A stretch of 64,000 bases of DNA from Branchiostoma floridae. Lineage: Eukaryota > Chordata > Leptocardii > Amphioxiformes > Branchiostomatidae. The notes beneath the pieces are model-generated. The model did not search any database and was not told the DNA's origin. It saw only the letters and a list, made by a program, of their open reading frames with translations. Numbering within the stretch: position 1 is the stretch's first letter; each line of letters begins with the position of its first letter. Where the stretch lies: NCBI RefSeq assembly GCF_000003815.2, contig NC_049981.1:30011851-30075850 (forward strand), given 5' to 3'. Below, piece by piece: positions 1-11,375 of this stretch. A program made the position numbers and the translations under genes.

Positions 1-1359
1 GACCAAATAAAGCAGTGGGGAAATCCTCTACTTCCATTAGCTTTTTCCTGCTATCTGTAAGTTTTTTTTTACACAGAGAGGTAGAGCTAACCTTAGCACT
101 ATTGCAAACTATTTATAGCATCATACAGTTGCCATGTTAGTAACGCACATATAAGATGCCTATTCCATTTACAAGAAAAATGTTAGTAGAGTAGATTGTG
201 GGCATCAACGGGAAGAAGAAGAAGTAGAGATCTTCGGTTAAGTAGGAGTCTCGCTCCAGTTACTAGTAGTTATTAGTGGGTGGAAGAAAAAAAGGACATA
301 ACATTGTCCTTTTTCATTATTTAGTAGTGCAGTTTTGCCTTGGCTCACACAATAATATTCAGCCATGTACACCGGGTCACCCCTACTCTTCTTGATAAGT
401 GGGTTCTTTTACGTGGTTTGATGTCGTTAGGTCCCCCACACACAGTGTAACAAAAATCATTGAATTGTTCTGGTTGTGCGAGTCTAAGGAGGTTAGAAAA
501 GAACCTCCTTCGTGAGTTCAAACATTTTCACTGGTAGGAAAATGCAAGACCATGGTTTAAAATGGACCTACCCGTGGAACCCATATGCAATGCCCTAGCA
601 ACAGCACAGGATGATAATTTTCTTTTCTCACTGGGGAGTAGGGCCCAGCAAACCACATGGGACCAAATACATGTACCATGTTGCATCATGCAAAGAAAAT
701 CACATGGCTGGAACTCATCAAGCTACATGCATGATTTACAAAAGAACAAGACTGATCTACAGAAAAACTAATATAAAAATTCCAACACTGAACCCAAACT
801 ACAAGTTACAACTATGGAAATATCTTAGTAAATGTTTCCATTACAATTTCCAAACAGGGGGCTGTATCGACAGTGTGAGCATTTTGCACTTTAAAAACCC
901 ATTAAAAGGGTGTGGATTATTCCTTTGACAGGATTGACATACAAATTACAAAACTGTAAATGTCATAGAAAAACACGATTTATCATGAGTGTTGACAGAA
1001 CTCGGGTGCCAACAGCAGGGATTCAGATTTAAATGCCTCCAACAATGGACATGGCTACCCAGGGGAGCTCAGCACCCAACTAACCCTCACTCCAGGGCGG
1101 CAATATCCCTAAGGTAAGCAAAATTATAGCTTTTGTTTAAATTGTGGTTTACATAAAGAAAATCTCTCATTTTCGTACAAAAACTCTGGTGCTTTCGGTA
1201 GGAATATATAATTCTAAGCAAAAAATGAAGTTTGGATAATTTTAGGTGCAAGCTGCAACATGTTTTCTTCTTTTGCACCAAGTAACTGGAGACCGGACAA
1301 AGAAATTGCGCAACGCCTTCCTTCCGATTCTAAGAAACAGTTCCAGAAAGTGTACCCAC
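1..1359. other. AT-rich non-coding stretch, no gene recognised
   Basis: No convincing exon was found in either strand. It may be intron or 3' sequence of the minus-strand gene whose putative first exon ends at 1,360, but I could not identify a second exon. A small palindrome (arms AAGGAGGTT / AACCTCCTT) sits at 486-510. Confidence 0.4.
486..510. repeat. Short palindrome, decayed member of the CAAGG...CCTTG family
   Basis: A 9-bp arm AAGGAGGTT and its exact reverse complement are separated by 7 bases. The flanks GCGAGTC (478-484) and GTGAGTT (512-518) agree at 5 of 7 positions, as expected of an old target duplication. Confidence 0.45.
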
Positions 1360-2850: not shown

Positions 2851-2858
2851 ATTTATCT

Positions 2859-2883
2859 CAAGGGCCTTTTCAAAAGCTCCTTG
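2859..2883. mobile_element. 25-bp palindromic insert with 8-bp direct repeats
   Basis: The insert starts CAAGGGCCTTTT, ends AAAAGCTCCTTG, and is flanked by ATTTATCT at 2,851-2,858 and 2,884-2,891. Member of the CAAGG...CCTTG family. Confidence 0.6.
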
Positions 2884-3064
2884 ATTTATCTGGATGCTAT
2901 CACTGTATGTTACGTAGTATAAGTCTAAAAGAAAATTAAATATAAAGAACCCTACCTACCGATCCTCATTTATTGAAACATTGAAACAGGAAACACGACA
3001 TTTTTCCCTGGGCCTAACATGAAAGGGGTAAAGGCAGTGCAAAACAATATAGTCAGTGTCTACT

Positions 3065-3101
3065 CAAGGAGCTTTTAAAAGGAGCTTTTAAAAGCTCCTT
3101 G
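3065..3101. mobile_element. 37-bp palindromic insert with 7-bp direct repeats
   Basis: It starts CAAGGAGCTTTTAAAA, ends AAAAGCTCCTTG, and contains one internal duplication of the GGAGCTTTTAAAA arm. GTCTACT flanks it at 3,058-3,064 and 3,102-3,108. Confidence 0.65.
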
Positions 3102-3663
3102 GTCTACTCTATGCTTACTCTAGATTATCAAGTTGGTTTGACTTCATTTCCGAAGACAGTGGAATACGAAAGATCCCACCTTTTCTATCATGAATCTGTA
3201 TCATGATATCAGCACACTTCAATATTGCATACTAGTACATGTATGTAGGGCTGGCATATAAGTAACGTTATCGTGTGACGCTGGGACACAGGATACATAT
3301 TTGCCAGAAAGACCGCGGCAGTGTCAAATCTCGAACTGAGTACAAACTGACACTGAAATATGGTCCGGCTCAATGTACTGCAGTAACATACCGCACACTG
3401 CGCATATAGTCTCTACCAGACTCCCGCCTGACCGAAAATAGGGGAATTTGGCCAAGTTTAATGTATTAAATAGGAATACTGAAAGTGGGACTAGGATTTA
3501 TTTGGCCTAGACTAGTTGTAGTGAATTGTTCGGCCGCTGAGCTGGATATTCTGCAAAATTTTGCCAAAAGCCTGACTGAAAACCCATAGTAACTTATTTG
3601 TCCCTATTTCATTTGGCCAAATTCTTCTCTTTTTTCCTCCTCCAGCTGACACGTCTGCCTGTT

Positions 3664-3837
3664 AAATCTCCAAGCAGATCCTACGGTAGCATAAGATAGT
3701 ATCAAAAGCTGCCAGAGGAGTGAAGCCAGCATATGAGTGTGTTTGGCTACATGACAAATGTACACCTCTTGGCTGACTACACTCCTTGGTCAGTTTAGTA
3801 CTATCTTATGCCATCGTATGATCTGTTTGGAGATTAT
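3664..3837. mobile_element. Palindromic MITE, family A
   Basis: Imperfect inverted repeats of about 40 bp at the two ends: AATCTCCAAGCAGATCC at the left, and GATCTGTTTGGAGATT at the right. Related copies occur at 6,850-7,005, 28,412-28,582 and 35,049-35,219, with a fragment at 23,363. No coding capacity. Confidence 0.75.
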
Positions 3838-4349
3838 ATAACGTCTGCCCAAGGAGGTTATTGCCTGAAGACTACTGCGCATACAAGATCCTTCTAGAAG
3901 CGCCTGGAAACAGGTGCTATTACCGGGGCCGCTCACATGACCGCTCATGTGACCCAGAGGGCGTTGACTTGCCTCGGGCCAATATTTCGTGTTGTATGCT
4001 TGCTCGAGTAGACAATAAACTACACGATGGAACGTGACGACCAGGTAATAAAGTAATACAGCTGACAGAGCATTACTACGGTGATAATAAGAAATGACAA
4101 ATTTATAATGTTGCGTGTAGATATGAATGTCTAATTTTGTGAGGCGTTACACACCAATCATAGATATGTCATCAGCCAAGTAAAGCCCTGTATTATCATA
4201 TAACCCAGGGGCTTGATAAAAACGTCTTTTTTAACCTGAATCAAAAATTTTATAGCATATAAATTATACTGCTCTTGTCCAAGGCGGCTTTATGCCTTCC
4301 CTGAATATACATAGGCGCTGCAGAAAAGCGTGGTGTTATGAGAAGATTA

Positions 4350-4450
4350 AAGATTATAAGAAGTTTATTTGCAACTTCGTACCCGAGGGCTAATTGCAAG
4401 TACATGGTATAAACATAGTGACAATGGACAGTAATAAAGAATATTCTACT
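4350..4450. repeat. LINE 3'-end-like fragment
   Basis: The segment around CCGAGGGCTAATTGCAAGTA resembles 20,180-20,260 (GCCGGAGGGCTAATAGCAG), so it is an interspersed repeat. The style fits a non-LTR element 3' end; the class is inferred. Confidence 0.4.
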
Positions 4451-4733
4451 CTAGTAATACAGTAATACTATGTACTAGTGTTGGCTATTTCTAACCAGGT
4501 GCAAACGTACTATGAATAATGAATGTATAGCGTCACAGCTAGTTTTAAAACTTGAATAGAGCAAGGAGGTTTCATTTTCTAACCTCATTGAATACTAGTA
4601 TTGCAAGGAGGCTCAATTCAATCGCGTTTTGCATATTTTGTCGCCTTGTTGGGGGGATACTTTTGATTAGAACACGGCCATCTTTCCTCAGCCAATCAGG
4701 AGCGAGTATTTCTTGTGACTAAATCCACATAGT

Positions 4734-4876
4734 ATGGTGTCCCTAGGGGTAGGGGTGTACTAAGTAACGAATAAATTGACTAAGTTGGAGACGCCCACCA
4801 TTGAACTGAATGGTCTCCCTAGGGGTAGGGGTGTACCAACCAACGAATAAATTGACTAAGTTGGAGACGCCCACCT
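4734..4876. repeat. Two-unit tandem repeat, about 76-bp period
   Basis: CCCTAGGGGTAGGGGTGTAC followed by AACGAATAAATTGACTAAG and TTGGAGACGCCCACC occurs at 4,741-4,799 and again at 4,817-4,876 with few differences. Confidence 0.85.
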
Positions 4877-5067
4877 TTCTCATGCAAATAGAAGCAATTA
4901 AAGAATTAACAAAAAGGGAAACAGCAAATCAACCTATGTTACTGAACATCTTTATTCATAACATAAACAAAGGAAATTCTAACGATCATGAAAGAAAGTC
5001 AGAAAACGAACAAGACAATAATAAAGAGTTTCTTGTAACAAGAAAATACATACAAACAGCGTTACAT

Positions 5068-5103
5068 CAAACTTTCAAAGACATGAAAAATATAACCTCC
5101 TTG
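5068..5103. mobile_element. 36-bp insert with CAAGG-family right end and direct repeats
   Basis: The right end TATAACCTCCTTG matches the family consensus, while the left end (CAAACTTTCAAAG) is diverged. GTTACAT flanks it at 5,061-5,067 and 5,104-5,110, and the identity extends to GTTACATCAA. Confidence 0.5.
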
Positions 5104-5119
5104 GTTACATCAAGCTAGG

Positions 5120-5824
5120 GAACAGGCTCCAAGATAGTAAAGAAAAACTAGTAGAGATGCTACATAAAAACATGCGAGTTAAATTGATCAAAACGATCAA
5201 TACTTCCATAAACGAGAAACAAACTAAAAATGCAGGAAGATAATGCATGATGTGGTCTACCAGGAACGGGTCAAACTGGGAACAGGACAGCTCGTCAGAA
5301 CGGTTGCTCCAGCAGGGCGAATGAAATGGGGGAGGAGGCAGCGACATCGGCCGGTCTGTCTGGCAAGAACTGGTCAGGATCAAAACTACAGAACAGTTCG
5401 GCAGAGATGCCACCATGCCGCAGCAAAACGTTTTACACCAGCTCGAGCTGGAACTCAGACATGTCGGGTTGTGTACGGAACTCGCCTGAACAATTACTGT
5501 GAAAACGGCTGAACATACTCGAGAAAATGGGCCTCCAAGACATGCCACGTCCTGCTCATTTGAGGTCAGGTTGGGAACTGGGATTGATCTGACATACACC
5601 CACAGAACAATGGCATTGTGGTGCAAAAAAGTGTTGTAAAACCAGACATGAATTTCACACAAGCCTCATGAGGAATGGTGTGAGGCGCCATCACCATGGT
5701 CATGAATGGGAAATAGGAGAAGAATATAGCCTGTCTGTTCGCTTGCTAGGAAACAAACTGCATGTTTCTATTGACTAAAAAAGTGTATTTTGCTTCGGAT
5801 AGATGGCCATGTTCTAAGTCAGAT
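5120..5824. other. Non-coding or coding-like decayed stretch
   Basis: Several short frames show coding-like composition, but none is intact and none matches a family I know. Possibly a remnant of a transposon ORF. No splice structure was found. Confidence 0.3.
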
Positions 5825-5924
5825 NNNNNNNNNNNNNNNNNNNNNNNNNNNNNNNNNNNNNNNNNNNNNNNNNNNNNNNNNNNNNNNNNNNNNNNNNNNN
5901 NNNNNNNNNNNNNNNNNNNNNNNN
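5825..5924. other. Assembly gap (100 N)
   Basis: Exactly 100 N, the conventional placeholder for a gap of unknown size. Confidence 0.99.
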
Positions 5925-5965
5925 TGTGAATCTTCCATTGTCCTGTGAAACTCTGTGTGATTGCC

Positions 5966-6265
5966 AACCCAGACCTACCGATCGTCAAGCTTGCCGACAA
6001 ACAAAGGACATTTGTCAAACTGGCGTCCTTTTTTTACCGACGTTAGGTGTGTGTATTCAAGGAGGTTTCAAACTCCCTTGGTGTATTATAAAAATCTGTT
6101 TGTGTCTACAGTTATGATGGAAATGAGATGCCGACTGTCTTTGTCTTTAGGATATGCTTTTTTTGTCTTTTTTTTTCAAAGAGGTTTGAAAGATTAGCAT
6201 TTGATGCTATGGACATGTACGAAAGACCACCGGTAGACAAAACGGCATCTCGCTCAGAGTAAAAG
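5966..6265. repeat. Interspersed or duplicated unit, copy 1
   Basis: The block from ACCTACCGATCGTCAAGCTT to GACAAAACGGCATCTCGC is repeated at 6,296-6,412 plus 6,700-6,836. Copy 1 contains the 23-bp palindrome insert at 6,058-6,080, which copy 2 lacks. Confidence 0.8.
6058..6080. mobile_element. 23-bp palindromic insert with paralogous empty site
   Basis: CAAGGAGGTTTC plus AAACTCCCTTG, flanked by GTGTATT at 6,051-6,057 and 6,081-6,087. The paralogous unit at 6,376-6,382 holds one GTGTATT and no insert, so insertion with target duplication can be read directly. Confidence 0.8.
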
Positions 6266-6295
6266 TTGATAATGATAATGATAAATGATAACCCG

Positions 6296-6836
6296 GACCT
6301 ACCGATCGTCAAAGCTTGCCGACAAACAAAAGACATTTGTCAAACTGGCGTGGCGTTTTTACCGACGTTAGGTGTGTGTATTACAAAAACCTGTTACTGC
6401 CTACAGTTATAATGAATGAAGACCTTTATTGCACATTTTTGCCCCACTGGGCTAAGTACAGGTCACACGGTAAGAATCAATCATACACATCTATATATGC
6501 AGATGTGCGTCTAATCTATTCTATGACATTCGACTTCCTCTCGCTTCTTGGTAATTGCATAAATGTAGCTAGCTGTATGGTTGGTTAGAGTTGGTTTATC
6601 AAAAGCTGTCAGGAATATAAATTTCTCTTTACTGTTCAAGTGTCTGAAGTGGGGATATTTACTTAACACATAGTCAAATAAAATGTTCCTATCGCTATCA
6701 TGGAAATGAGATGCCGACTGTCTCTGTCTTTTAGGACATGCTTTTTTTGTCTTTTTTCAAAGAGGCTTGAAAGGTTAGCATTTGATGCTATGGGCATGTA
6801 CGAAAGATCACCAGTAGACAAAACGACGTCTCAGAG
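6296..6836. repeat. Duplicated unit copy 2, split by a nested insertion
   Basis: It matches copy 1 from 6,296 to about 6,412 and resumes at about 6,700 (GGAAATGAGATGCCGACTGT). The intervening sequence at 6,413-6,698 is absent from copy 1. Confidence 0.75.
6413..6698 (-). mobile_element. Nested LINE 3'-end-like insertion
   Basis: Begins AATGAAGACCTTTATTGCAC; on the minus strand this gives GTGCAATAAAGGTCTTCATT, the look of a non-LTR 3' terminus. It interrupts copy 2 of the 5.97-6.84 kb repeat. Class is inferred. Confidence 0.45.
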
Positions 6837-6849
6837 TTGGAAATAAATG

Positions 6850-7005
6850 TGTGTTCCCCATAATCTCCAAGCAGATCTTGCGGTGGCACAAGAGAAGTTT
6901 CATACGCTTCGCGGTGGCTTGCCGGCTAAACTCCTTCCCCAGTTTATGATACTACTAGTATCTTATGCCACCACAAGATCTGCCTGGAGATTATGGGGGA
7001 ACACA
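6850..7005. mobile_element. Palindromic MITE, family A copy with extended TIRs
   Basis: Left TGTTCCCCATAATCTCCAAG and right CTGGAGATTATGGGGGAACA are near-perfect inverted repeats, followed inward by matched GGTGGCA / TGCCACC arms. Confidence 0.8.
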
Positions 7006-7268
7006 TATTGTTTTATGTGGTAGGGGACCAAGTTAGCAAATTTTGAAAGTGCCGAAATACCAGCTAGTGGGCGATAGGCGGCGCTTCGAATCGAAATAAA
7101 TTTTGTAAGCCGTTCCAAGGACATTTGATATATGTTGTTAGGTGTCATTGGTCGTTCATTGCAATTCGTATGCAAAGAAGTGCTACTGCCCGCCCCCGAC
7201 AAGTGTATAGTTTCGGGTTGTTTTTGTGGCTGATTTGGCTCAATTTCTGCGTTTCAGTTCAGTTTAGC

Positions 7269-7299
7269 CAAGGACGTTATATCTGATATAACGTCCTTG
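7269..7299. mobile_element. 31-bp perfect palindrome with 7-bp direct repeats
   Basis: CAAGGACGTTATATC, one T, then its exact reverse complement. GTTTAGC flanks at 7,262-7,268 and 7,300-7,306; the next base C also matches. Confidence 0.75.
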
Positions 7300-7309
7300 G
7301 TTTAGCCTT

Positions 7310-8080
7310 CATGCTCAGTTAGGGTACTAGTAACCAGGGCACCCAGTCAGTGCGTAGCCCGGCAGACCTCTGCTTTGGGCTGTAATTCACAAAGCCGCCA
7401 TAGGAGGCGCACAAACAAGTGCGCCAAATCCCCAAATGAATGAGTACGAAAAAGGCTGACCTGACTAAAATCGCGCCCCTAGCGGTCGGCCTTCCTCCTG
7501 CCAGCGAGAGATAATGTATTAAACAGTATACGAAAAGCCACACTGTGACGAAAGGTCAATAGCACACAGTGGCGTTCCTCTCCGCTCACCCGCATTGGGC
7601 TGTGCTCACCACATGGTCTGTTTTGTGTGCTTGCGTAGTCTCCAAGCAGTCGTGTCAGCTGGATGAAAAAAGAAGAATTTGGCCAAATAGACGACAAATA
7701 AGTTGCCATGGGATTTCAGTCAGTCTTTTGCAGTCTATCCAGCTAAGATACAGCTGTCCGCCCATCAAATTTTGGCCGTTTTTGATGATCCCTCGTGATG
7801 ATGGTTTTTTTTTTTTTTTCATTTCACGGAGTGCATTTATCGGATGACACAAAAAGTACTTTTAGAATCACATACTACTACTACTAGACTCGAAATCGTG
7901 TTTTCACACATTGTTCAATCCACATATTGAAATTCTGTATTAAAATCAATTTACTACAATAGCCTCTAAGCACAAGTATAATGTGGCTGTGTTCTTTGGT
8001 GTCATTTTGTACGGCTTTCTAATGACCCTGGGGAGGGGATATCGGGAATAGACAAGGTAAGCTAGAGAATGTTAAGATTT
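7310..8080. other. Non-coding stretch
   Basis: No supportable exon. It contains a T-tract at about 7,804-7,820 and an AT-rich tail; nothing else recognisable. Confidence 0.4.
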
Positions 8081-8089
8081 CCTCCCAAC

Positions 8090-8205
8090 ATCTGCTTGAA
8101 GATTGACGTCACCACCGATGACGTGTCTATCGTTATCATTGACCTTTAATACGTTCAAGCGGAAAGCGTACAACTGACTGGGGATCATATTCATATATAT
8201 CGACA
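8090..8205. repeat. Diverged first unit of a CRE-containing tandem array
   Basis: GATTGACGTCACCACCGATG then ACGTGTCT...CATTGACCT resembles the two near-identical 153-bp units downstream, but with many substitutions. Confidence 0.6.
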
Positions 8206-8362
8206 CCAATTTTTTTTTTTTTACTTCTGATTACATTTATTAAAAGTAGCCATAGCGTGTAACAATAAATATGACAAATAAAGATATTATCCTTTGACCT
8301 ATGCTAGTGTATAGTGTTGTTTAGTCACCTTTAAAACCTTTTATTCAACCTTGCCTGGAGGT

Positions 8363-8516
8363 TGGAATGACGTCATGACCGATGACGTGTCTGTTCAGGT
8401 CGTCATCATTGACCTAACGTTCAGGTGAAAAGGGCACATACGAGATTGGGGAGGGTATGTTTATATAGAGAGAGATTATTGACGCAAAGACAGAAAAAGG
8501 GTCAACGTACACAAAT
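8363..8516. repeat. 153-bp unit with CRE and nuclear-receptor-like motifs, copy 1
   Basis: Starts GGAATGACGTCATGACCGAT and ends GGGTCAACGTACACAAAT. It is nearly identical to 8,636-8,788. It contains the palindromic CRE TGACGTCA, a second ATGACGTG, and inverted half-sites AGGTCG / TGACCT. Confidence 0.85.
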
Positions 8517-8635
8517 TTGATATTTGAAAATCTCCTTTGAAAATCCAAATTGTCTTCAGCTTGACTTTGGCTTAGCTTTGGAATCCAAATTGTCTTCAGT
8601 CTGAAGTGTCTTACAACCTTTCCTATTGGACATCT

Positions 8636-8788
8636 GGAATGACGTCATGACCGATGACGTGTCTGTTCAGGTCGTCATCATTGACCTAACGTTCAGGTGA
8701 AAAGGGCACACACGAGGTTGTGGAGGGTATGTTTATATAGAGAGAGATTATTGACGCAAAGACAGAAAAAGGGTCAACGTACACAAAT
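8636..8788. repeat. 153-bp unit with CRE and nuclear-receptor-like motifs, copy 2
   Basis: Second copy, 273 bp downstream of copy 1. The spacer also carries a two-fold repeat of ATCCAAATTGTCTTCAG (about 8,543 and 8,583). Confidence 0.85.
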
Positions 8789-8925
8789 GCATACGTATAA
8801 ACATACGTCTATCGATACATTTTTAGCCATTGCGTCAATCAAAGACATTACACTTACATGTAAGTCATGTAATGCTGGTCGTGATCCCAAAAAAGAACTT
8901 TGCAAACAAACAAAAAACAGGACAG

Positions 8926-9210
8926 CTAGTTCACCTTTATCCGCGGGGCAACCTATATCCGTTGCTTTTTTTTATAAAACGGTACCTAGGGGTATCGAGT
9001 CAACGGACTGTGGCTTCAAACTGTAATACACTTGTATTTTGAAAATATTGTAATTTTTTCAAACACATGTATTGGAATTTCAAATCTACGTCCGTCGACT
9101 TTAGATTTCTAGATACATGTACCTTGTTATTTTTTCAAAACAACGGATATAGGTTACCACGCGGATATAATGACAATGATCTTTTTTTTATATAGGTGAA
9201 CTAGCGTTAC
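8926..9210. mobile_element. Palindromic MITE, family B, complete copy
   Basis: Left end CTAGTTCACCTTTATCCGCG and CAACCTATATCCGTTG; right end CAACGGATATAGGTTACC ... GGTGAACTAGCGTTA. Other copies or parts lie at 9,325-9,606, 14,626-14,871, 15,243-15,345 and 30,548-30,590. Confidence 0.75.
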
Positions 9211-9263
9211 AGATATGACTTGTGTGTCAGAGACTGTCAGTGTCATTCGCAAACACAAAATAG

Positions 9264-9325
9264 CCGATGCTGTGAATTAGGACTTTGCCATGGCCAATAT
9301 ATTGACTGATGGAGGCCATATGACG
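9264..9325 (+). repeat. Interspersed repeat shared with 46,311-46,360
   Basis: AATTAGGACTTTGCCATGGC...CATATGACG resembles AATTAGGATTTTGCCATGGT...CATATATAG, which follows a LINE-type zinc-finger remnant at 46 kb. Probably the 3' region of that LINE family. Confidence 0.4.
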
Positions 9326-9606
9326 TTAATAATAGGGTTAATGCCGGGGTAACTTATANNNNNNNNNNNNNNNNNNNNNNNNNNNNNNNNNNNNNNNNNN
9401 NNNNNNNNNNNNNNNNNNNNNNNNNNNNNNNNNNNNNNNNNNNNNNNNNNNNNNNNNNAAACAGGATATTTAGTCAAATTGCTATACTTAAAAAATATTG
9501 CAGTTTGAAATCACAGTTTGACGATTTGATATCCCTAAATACCCTGTTTTTAAATTCAACGGATATAGGTTACTCCGTTGATGAAGGTAAACAAGCGTTA
9601 TATCAC
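9325..9606. mobile_element. Palindromic MITE, family B copy containing an assembly gap
   Basis: Left part GCCGGGGTAACTTATA runs into the gap. The right part ends CAACGGATATAGGTTACTCC ... AAACAAGCGTTATAT. The gap therefore lies inside a hairpin-forming repeat. Confidence 0.6.
9359..9458. other. Assembly gap (100 N)
   Basis: Exactly 100 N, inside a palindromic repeat. Confidence 0.99.
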
Positions 9607-9686
9607 CACCTTCGCCGTATATCATGATCAGCTAGCGTTCGCTGAGGCGGGCCGACATTGTTTCCACACTTTTATATGCATGTAAC

Positions 9687-9708
9687 CAAGGAGGTTATAA
9701 CCTCTTTG
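9687..9708. mobile_element. 22-bp palindromic insert with 7-bp direct repeats
   Basis: CAAGGAGGTTA followed by TAACCTCTTTG, one mismatch from a perfect palindrome. ATGTAAC flanks at 9,680-9,686 and 9,709-9,715. This is the shortest member seen. Confidence 0.75.
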
Positions 9709-10119
9709 ATGTAACAATATCCGCGACAAGTAGAAATATTAATTTCTGACCTGTGCTATTTGATGTGGTCACGTCAGTAAAATATAATACCAGTGAATCG
9801 TTCTGAAAATCTTTTATTACAACAGTACAAAGAACATTTTGCAAAATGTACAGCTACAAATACCCAGCTAAGTATATCCGCAAGTTATATATAGTGCAAG
9901 CACAAGCTAGCCACAGAGTGCTCTAATATAGAGCTAAGAGATATTGAGTACTTCAGTCCACAAACCACATACTTTTGTACAGTGCAGGTACATGTGATTG
10001 AATAAACATAGTCCTAGTTTTGGGGTAAGAAAGCATGAAAAGGACTACAGACAATAGTTCGTAGGTATTCTCGTCAAGACGAGGGTAACCATGGCGACCG
10101 TGAGGAAGTGACATTTGTT

Positions 10120-10295
10120 GAGTTGAAGCACTGTTGACTGGTAACTAGGATGTGACGATAGAAATAAAACAACGCTAGACACAAACTTCAACCAAGGCGT
10201 ATAACCTCCTTTGTCGACGTTTGTCTCTAGGGTTGTCTTATTTTTTACCGACACATCCTAGTTACTTGTCAACAGTATTTTCAACAGGGTTGAAG
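10120..10295. mobile_element. Palindromic MITE with CAAGG-type centre
   Basis: Arms such as ACTGTTGACTGGTAACTAGG (left) and CCTAGTTACTTGTCAACAGT (right) pair. Nested inside are CTAGACACAAAC / GTTTGTCTCTAG arms and a central CAAGGCGTATAACCTCCTTTG. Confidence 0.7.
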
Positions 10296-10402
10296 CAAGT
10301 AGTCATACATACACTTTATCAAGTGCTGACAGCTTATTTCCCCATAGCGGCTACGTTATGGAATTTGTTTATCACCCCAACAAATTAGAGGCTCACCTAT
10401 CT

Positions 10403-10570
10403 TACCCCCCGTAACTCAGGGTGGGGTTGTAGACTTTATAACAGTCTTTGTTCTCAGTTCGTTTGTCCATACAAACATATATACAAACTACATTTGGTAC
10501 GTTACCCCCCCATCCCACAACTCAGGGTGGGGTTGTATACCTTAAAACATTCTGCACACGAGTTCCTATA
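10403..10570. repeat. Two-unit tandem repeat, about 100-bp period
   Basis: AACTCAGGGTGGGGTTGTA, preceded by a run of C, occurs near 10,412 and near 10,519, each followed by similar TTA-rich sequence and an AGTTC motif. Confidence 0.6.
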
Positions 10571-10904
10571 CCAACACACCTCCGAATGCGCAGTAGCATC
10601 GCAATGACGTGCAGTTTAAAACAAGGTATTAACGTTACATGTACATCGTGACTTTTAACAATGCGAAATACGTCAAACTATTTTCCACGCCTTTGATACT
10701 ATTGTACTACGGCCATTGTGCCATGTAACAAAAGCTTGGCATCTTGGACTTAGCAACCCACAACGCGTCACATCATTAATTTCAAATTATACATAACGCT
10801 ATATACATGCTTCGGTTACCATGGCAATGCCTGTATACCTGTACATGGCTCCTTGCCAGCGTTAACACAGTCACAAGCATGCTTCTTACGTAAACAACTT
10901 CCTC

Positions 10905-11055
10905 TGATTTGTATGCCTCTATTTATAGTTTATTGCCTTATTTTTACCCAGTTATTGCCTATTGTAAAAAGGGTGTGGGTCATAAATTGATAAAACAATA
11001 GCACAATAAACTAAAAATAGCGACAATAAACTAAAAATAGAGGCATACAAACTAC
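10905..11055. mobile_element. Palindromic MITE
   Basis: TTTGTATGCCTCTATTTATA (left) is the inverted counterpart of TAAAAATAGAGGCATACAAA (right); internal AGTTTATTG / CAATAAACT arms continue the pairing. Confidence 0.75.
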
Positions 11056-11334
11056 ACAAGCCTGACTTAACTTTTGCTAGAACCAGCTAGCATTGAATGA
11101 ACTTACGGCTTACTAGTATTACGAACAAAAGTATGTACAGCGTTACTCAACTAGGAATTTAGTTGTGTGTAACGATATCGATCTATATACAAATGACACC
11201 CCCCACATCTCTCCTCAAACAAAGTCTAGACAAAATTGGCCACTTATACGCGACAGTGATTGTGATTGTGCAAGTCATGATGGTCTTAAGGTATGTGAAG
11301 CATTTTTTTTAGCCGAACGGGCAGTCTGTCTAGG

Positions 11335-11357
11335 CAAGTGAGGTTATAACCTCCTTG
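11335..11357. mobile_element. 23-bp palindromic insert with 7-bp direct repeats
   Basis: CAAGTGAGGTTA followed by TAACCTCCTTG, flanked by GTCTAGG at 11,328-11,334 and 11,358-11,364. Confidence 0.75.
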
Positions 11358-11375
11358 GTCTAGGACACAGTATTG

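What the first reader, a model, noticed from the sequence alone, without database searches (positions are those of the whole stretch)
2851..11364. A family of 22-37 bp palindromes that look like extremely short mobile elements
At least six sites share the plan CAAGG...CCTTG with near-perfect internal palindromy and identical flanking 7-8 bp direct repeats. They are 2,859-2,883 (ATTTATCT), 3,065-3,101 (GTCTACT), 6,058-6,080 (GTGTATT), 7,269-7,299 (GTTTAGC), 9,687-9,708 (ATGTAAC) and 11,335-11,357 (GTCTAGG). 5,068-5,103 (GTTACAT) is a likely seventh and 486-510 a decayed eighth. Consensus arm: CAAGGAGGTTA and its reverse complement. The flanks differ between sites, so this is insertion with target duplication, not a repeated larger unit. 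The ends fit a cut-and-paste transposon, but the whole element is no longer than two terminal repeats, much smaller than usual MITEs. Several target repeats begin GT and contain TA, hinting at a preferred site.
Basis: seen in the sequence. Interest (0 to 1): 0.9.

Follow-up and report, generated by a model that had tools for sequence, protein, structure and literature searches.

The report
Scars left by departed P-like transposons
The tiny palindromes with matching flanks are most likely not miniature jumping genes but repair scars left where larger P-element-like transposons cut themselves out, and this animal genome appears to hold thousands of them.

Summary
Seven window sites have a perfect 7-bp (one 8-bp) flanking repeat around CAA...TTG; 100 dinucleotide-model controls average 0.16. 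The genome (513 Mb; probably amphioxus, recalled from its size) has 583, 312 and 125 perfect-arm sites for three arm types, with 0 in reversed controls. One window insertion lies in a duplicated unit whose other copy is empty.

The reading as ultra-short mobile elements is probably wrong. Two full-length elements (8.4 and 8.7 kb) end in CAAGGAG with perfect 31- and 38-bp inverted repeats and perfect 7-bp duplications. Both carry a P-superfamily transposase domain. The palindromes look like the outer ~13-19 nt of such ends, joined with overlaps, blunt or with filler: of 100 stubs matched to one parent, 99 stop by nt 19 of its 31-bp repeat. Drosophila P transposase cuts 17 bp inside its 31-bp repeat (PMC7776569, passages). 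So these are best explained as excision footprints repaired by end joining. The GT...AC target preference and the mostly 7-bp, rarely 8-bp duplications match Galileo, another P-superfamily transposon. Unsettled: 89 longer sites (43-73 bp), and a 46-bp form with 18 identical copies.

The parts
2859..2883 (.). Excision footprint, 25 bp, between 8-bp duplications ATTTATCT (2851-2858 and 2884-2891)
   Evidence: 8/8 flank match; right arm AAAAGCTCCTTG is the terminal sequence of the C19 parent
3065..3101 (.). Excision footprint, 37 bp, between 7-bp duplications GTCTACT; the arm motif occurs an extra time in the middle, as templated filler would leave
   Evidence: 7/7; arms CAAGGAGCTTTTA equal nt 1-13 of the C19 parent end
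5068..5103 (.). Asymmetric footprint, 36 bp, between GTTACAT duplications: right stub ATATAACCTCCTTG kept, left stub reduced to CAA plus filler
   Evidence: 7/7 flanks, only 10/36 palindromic positions
6058..6080 (.). Excision footprint, 23 bp, between GTGTATT duplications
   Evidence: 7/7; empty paralogous site at 6333-6419
6333..6419 (.). Empty paralogous site: same unit, one copy of GTGTATT and no insert
   Evidence: joined flanks of 6058-6080 match 86.5% over 89 columns across the junction
7269..7299 (.). Excision footprint, 31 bp, between GTTTAGC duplications; both arms read CAAGGACG instead of CAAGGAGG
   Evidence: 7/7, 30/31 palindromic
9687..9708 (.). Excision footprint, 22 bp, between ATGTAAC duplications
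   Evidence: 7/7, 20/22 palindromic
11335..11357 (.). Excision footprint, 23 bp, between GTCTAGG duplications; left arm altered (CAAGTGAGG)
   Evidence: 7/7, 12/23 palindromic in register
486..510 (.). Probable decayed footprint
   Evidence: arms present, flanks 4/7 at these ends
4562..4590 (.).
   Evidence: flanks 4/7

Best explanation
They are excision footprints of P-superfamily DNA transposons. A full-size element (autonomous ~8.5 kb, or non-autonomous such as the 1.2-kb copy) with CAAGGAG... terminal inverted repeats inserts with a 7-bp (rarely 8-bp) target duplication. The transposase later cuts it out with a long stagger, roughly 17-19 nt inside each terminal repeat, so that each flank keeps the duplication plus the outer part of one repeat. 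End joining trims and joins the two stubs, through short overlaps, blunt or with filler. Because the stubs come from inverted repeats, the joined product is a short palindrome between two target duplications. Arm variants covary on both sides because different parent families have different terminal repeats. Shown: insertion with duplication; parents with the same ends, duplication length and P-type transposase; stub length limit and joint diversity in one family. Inferred: the biochemical cut position, the repair pathway, and that these transposases did the cutting.
For: (1) Parents: C19 element 8,442 bp, 31/31 terminal repeat, duplication CTCTAAC; C11 element 8,684 bp, 38/38 terminal repeat, duplication AAGTCAT. 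Both have PF21787 above cut-off (E 8.4e-22, 6.2e-21). C19 also has PF21789 (3e-8, above cut-off) and PF21788 in two pieces (1.9e-5 above, 5.2e-4 below cut-off). (2) A 1,188-bp copy with duplication TTCTTAC; at least 40 places match the first ~84 nt of the C19 end at 90-100% (40 of 61 candidates scored). (3) In the 50 listed of 312 sites with C19 arms, 99 of 100 stubs follow the parent for 13-19 nt and 1 for 27 nt; 27 distinct joints; 14 of 50 overlap by 1-2 nt, 15 join exactly, 21 have extra letters. Stubs shorter than 13 nt could not appear in that search. (4) For CAAGGAGGTTATATCAGA followed by a base other than T, 7 of 7 sites have A at nt 19 and then differ. (5) Remnants of 10 and 13 bp with perfect 7-bp duplications, and one-sided sites. 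(6) Target logo GT(T/C)(A/T)(A/G)AC from 57 distinct duplications; Galileo: 7- or 8-bp duplications, consensus GTATTAC (PMC4168063, passages). (7) Drosophila P: 5' cut 17 bp inside a 31-bp repeat, donor break repaired by homologous recombination or end joining (PMC7776569, passages).
Against: No polymorphic site (full element in one haplotype, footprint in another) could be tested. Longer sites exist: 89 of 43-73 bp for the GGTTA arms against 583 of 22-42 bp; 13 of 50 listed GGTTGAA sites exceed 38 bp, and some stubs there look like 20-26 nt. One 46-bp form has 18 identical copies. In the ~276 kb held no CAAGG...CCTTG pair of 61 bp to 10 kb had exact 7-bp flanks (0 of 2,013; 0.12 expected by chance), so intact elements are much rarer than footprints. 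Parents of the commonest arms (GGTTAAA, GGTTATA) were not found. That a P donor site keeps 17 nt per side is inferred from the cut geometry and recalled; the passages seen describe the transposon ends.
Confidence: 0.9

Rival explanations
1. Ultra-short mobile elements: the palindromes are minimal transposons of two terminal repeats, moved as units by a transposase in trans.
For: Terminal repeats plus perfect target duplications; recurrent identical forms, including a 46-bp form with 18 exact copies and 9 of 50 sites sharing one 31-bp form.
Against: Joint diversity (27 forms in 50); stub limit near 17-19 nt of a longer parent repeat; remnants of 10-13 bp and one-sided forms with perfect duplications. 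Drosophila P needs 138 and 216 bp of end sequence (PMC1562414, passage). Recurrent forms can also arise from overlap-guided joining of the same ends, or by being carried inside another repeat: L020 and L039 share 60 identical flanking bases on both sides.
Confidence: 0.06
2. Internal-deletion derivatives: inserted elements lost their inside by slippage or abortive gap repair and kept two end fragments in place, without excision.
For: Would also give two end stubs between target duplications; a few sites keep 26-34 nt of an end.
Against: Deletions should stop at scattered positions; in the C19 family 99 of 100 stubs end by nt 19 of a 31-bp repeat, and 7 of 7 sites of another family part after the same nt 19.
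Confidence: 0.06
3. Chance palindromes or simple sequence.
For: None found.
Against: Controls near zero in every test.
Confidence: 0.005

Closest known systems
Drosophila P element excision (PMC7776569, passages)
   Same: P-type transposase, 31-bp terminal repeats (C19 parent: 31), long staggered cut near 17 nt, donor break repaired by end joining or homologous recombination
   Different: 7-bp instead of 8-bp duplication; ends CAAGGAG; here thousands of apparent scars in one genome, seen only by sequence
Galileo, P superfamily, Drosophila (PMC4168063 and PMC2775673, passages)
   Same: Mostly 7-bp, rarely 8-bp duplications; palindromic target with GT...AC (GTATTAC)
   Different: Galileo copies are described as elements with long variable repeats; no footprints are mentioned in the passages seen
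P-derived MITEs of Anopheles (PMC1562414, passages)
   Same: Non-autonomous copies sharing P ends
   Different: Those are full non-autonomous elements with 8-bp duplications; the palindromes here lack most of each end
Zebrafish Pdre2 / THAP9 (PMC10983969, passages)
   Same: Chordate P-like element with excision activity
   Different: 13-bp repeats starting CATACC, 8-bp duplications; THAP9 in zebrafish was reported to excise but not integrate

Membership tests
P superfamily (the parent elements) | P-type catalytic domains: RNase H-like with GTP-binding insertion | tested here: met
   PF21787 in both parents; PF21788 and PF21789 in exons of the C19 parent (one PF21788 piece below cut-off). These exons were not tested in the C11 parent
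P superfamily (the parent elements) | 7-8 bp target duplication with palindromic GT...AC preference | tested here: met
   7/7 at both parents and at the 1.2-kb copy; logo from 57 distinct duplications
P superfamily (the parent elements) | Terminal repeats of about 27-31 bp beginning CA | tested here: met
   31 and 38 identical bases beginning CAAGG
P superfamily (the parent elements) | THAP domain at the transposase N-terminus | tested here: inconclusive
   Not reported in the open frames and exons scanned; RAG1_imp_bd (PF12560) found instead. The full exon structure was not modelled
P excision footprint (the palindromes) | Both target duplications retained | tested here: met
   48 of 63 pairs with exact 7- or 8-bp flanks, 0 of 756 in controls
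P excision footprint (the palindromes) | Outer part of each terminal repeat kept up to a limit near the cut | tested here: met
   99 of 100 stubs at most 19 nt in the C19 family. The GGTTGAA family has some longer ones
P excision footprint (the palindromes) | Same site seen with the full element in another chromosome | not testable with these tools
   One assembly only; no relatives held
MITE / mobile micro-element | Two intact ends and uniform copies moved as units | tested here: not met
   27 joint forms among 50 sites; one-sided and 10-13 bp remnants. Exception left open: 46-bp form, 18 copies

The most novel reading that the evidence does not exclude
Some of the shortest forms, notably the 46-bp one with 18 identical copies, are moved as units by the P-type transposase, which would make them the smallest known DNA transposons.
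Probability: 0.06. Interest if true: 0.92.

Novelty: new variant of a known kind. Interest (0 to 1): 0.62.

Why it matters
A single chordate genome seems to hold a large natural record of transposon excision: over 1,000 perfect-arm sites by strict patterns (583 + 312 + 125), and by a rough extrapolation of 13 unselected sites in 275 kb about 24,000 in all (rough because most of that sequence was chosen next to known footprints). Each scar records one double-strand break with known ends and its repair product, so germline end-joining can be read from sequence alone. Repeat annotation would miss or misfile 20-40 bp scars. It also shows that P transposons can be far more visible by their scars than by their copies.

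Tried and rejected
Rejected: chance (controls). Mobile micro-elements as the general explanation, left open only for the 46-bp form. Internal deletion (stub limit).

Led nowhere at first: PF12017 gave no match in the genome, but it rang in none of the 14 control genomes either, so it shows nothing. The first 3.4-kb transposase loci showed no ends, nor did the 10-kb loci by direct search (there an inverted CAAGGAGGTTGAA pair without matching flanks turned out to be half wrong). L049, followed for 9.4 kb, is a one-sided stub without a second end. phmmer of the C19 transposase frame against solved structures gave only two hits, E 0.59 and 0.78. The second gene has no Pfam match up to E 5. A search for other copies of the C11 end never ran.

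Literature: ten search requests were made. In their listings I noticed no report of genome-wide P footprints in amphioxus; most listed papers were not opened, and the library lacks most subscription papers.
Full report
Observation. The window lies at C3:30011851-30075850 of a 513-Mb assembly in 431 contigs; size and character suggest an amphioxus, Branchiostoma floridae, which is recalled and was not tested. Palindromy varies from 30/31 to 10/36. The arm pattern CAAGGAGGTTA N{0,20} TAACCTCCTTG has 583 sites genome-wide and none when read backwards. In all sequence held, 47 of 63 CAAGGA...TCCTTG pairs have exact 7-bp flanks and one has exact 8-bp flanks, against 0 of 756 shifted comparisons. 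The misses include alternative pairings of nested arms and decayed sites.

Insertion. The site at 6058-6080 lies in a unit repeated at 6333-6419. The repeat is uninterrupted, with one GTGTATT and no insert; the joined flanks match it at 86.5% over 89 columns. So the insert came with a 7-bp duplication. Over 57 distinct duplications the target logo is palindromic, GT(T/C)(A/T)(A/G)AC: 19 start GT and 23 end AC, where 3.5 would be expected for each. With CAA as the outer triplet, 58 inserts of 4-45 bp have exact 7-bp flanks. The next triplet, CCT, has 11 (mostly one tandem repeat, part of it counted twice because overlapping loci were both present), and the median triplet has 1.

Parents. PF21787 (P-type RNase H) has three matches in the genome, two of them in long open frames, on C19 and C11. 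Extending both loci gave complete elements. C19:10308832-10317273 is 8,442 bp with 31 of 31 identical terminal bases and duplication CTCTAAC. C11:17071456-17080139 is 8,684 bp with 38 of 38 identical terminal bases and duplication AAGTCAT. Their ends begin CAAGGAGCTTTTATCAGG and CAAGGAGGTTGAATAAGGG. Pfam finds PF21787 in both, and PF21788 and PF21789 in further exons of the C19 element.

Footprints of a known parent. Arms of the C19 type (13 nt each, up to 30 nt between) have 312 sites, control 0. For the 50 sites whose letters were listed, I measured how far each stub follows the parent: 13 nt in 12, 14 in 20, 15 in 16, 16 in 23, 17 in 19, 18 in 6, 19 in 3, 27 in 1, out of 100 stubs. The search required at least 13 nt per side, so shorter stubs are not seen, but longer ones would have been. 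There are 27 distinct joints; 14 overlap by 1-2 nt, 15 join exactly and 21 carry extra letters. Some of the 21 may come from variant parents, since the C7 copy differs at nt 18. In another family, 7 of 7 sites with CAAGGAGGTTATATCAGA followed by a base other than T have A at nt 19 and then part ways. Five of the seven have an exact 7-bp duplication beyond a short joint, one has 6 of 7, and one has none within 9.4 kb.

Mechanism. Drosophila P transposase cuts the 5' strand 17 bp inside its 31-bp repeat, and the donor break is repaired by end joining or homologous recombination (PMC7776569, passages). It follows, by inference, that each flank keeps up to about 17 nt of the end. Joining two such stubs gives a palindrome of up to about 34-38 bp between two duplications, and less after trimming. 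The observed lengths fit: 47 of 50 C19-type sites are at most 38 bp. For GGTTGAA arms 37 of 50 are at most 38 bp and 6 exceed 42 bp. For GGTTA arms, 583 sites of 22-42 bp compare with 89 of 43-73 bp. Trimming explains one-sided inserts such as window 5068-5103 and remnants of 10 and 13 bp with perfect duplications, which no transposase could move. Different parents explain why arm changes appear on both sides.

What does not fit easily. Some GGTTGAA sites keep 20-26 nt per side, so the cut may differ between families, or filler may copy end sequence. At least one C19-type site keeps 27 nt or more on one side. Twenty-one of the 50 listed longer sites are exactly 46 bp; 18 copies of one 46-bp sequence exist, and their flanks could not be read. 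They may be passengers: L020 and L039 carry the same footprint within identical 60-bp flanks on both sides. Intact elements are rare: none among 2,013 long CAAGG...CCTTG pairs in about 276 kb. The parents of the two commonest arm types were not found.

Extent. Outside the window and outside the targeted sites, 13 inserts with exact 7-bp flanks occur in 275,457 bp, about 24,000 per genome by simple proportion (Poisson range roughly 13,000-41,000). Most of that sequence was chosen next to a known footprint, and one or two may be chance, so this is an order of magnitude only.

Comparison. Galileo, also of the P superfamily, makes 7-bp and rarely 8-bp duplications with consensus GTATTAC (PMC4168063, passages); the elements here share both features. 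Excision footprints of P elements are a known kind of thing (recalled). What appears new is their number, their origin from chordate P elements with 7-bp duplications, and the unusual parents. In the nine literature searches that ran I noticed no description of this in amphioxus, but I opened only a few of the listed papers.

Parents in passing. Both transposases carry a match to the RAG1 importin-binding model PF12560 (E 3.4e-7 and 3.7e-6). Both elements also have a second gene on the opposite strand, tail to tail with the transposase, with the two products 54% identical and without a Pfam match.

Noticed in passing
L055:3722-5995 (+) and L056:6248-6904 (-): P-type transposons carry an N-terminal match to the RAG1 importin-binding model PF12560 (E 3.4e-7 and 3.7e-6): a RAG1-like N-terminus next to a P-type instead of a Transib-type catalytic core. 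N-RAG-TP of Aplysia is described as RAG1-N-terminal-like (PMC8355894, passage).
   Followed up: partly
L055:8674-9735 (-) and L056:549-1598 (+): Both elements have a second gene, convergent with the transposase, 54% identical between the two elements over 354 columns, no Pfam match up to E 5.
   Followed up: partly
C1:6076960-6077005 and 17 further places: A 46-bp form with the same ends has 18 exact copies over many chromosomes; passenger in a repeat or mobile unit, flanks not read.
   Followed up: partly
L020:8362-8398 and L039:188-224: The same 37-bp footprint with identical 60-bp flanks on both sides, in opposite orientation, on two chromosomes: footprints also spread inside larger repeats.
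   Followed up: partly
L024:4929-4988: A footprint whose left duplication and stub are tandemly repeated, looking like a slipped or templated repair product.
   Followed up: no
window 3660-3840 and 6860-7000: By eye, two longer inverted-repeat elements with related arms (CTCCAAGCAGATC...GATCTG..TGGAGA), probably a MITE family unrelated to this finding.
   Followed up: no
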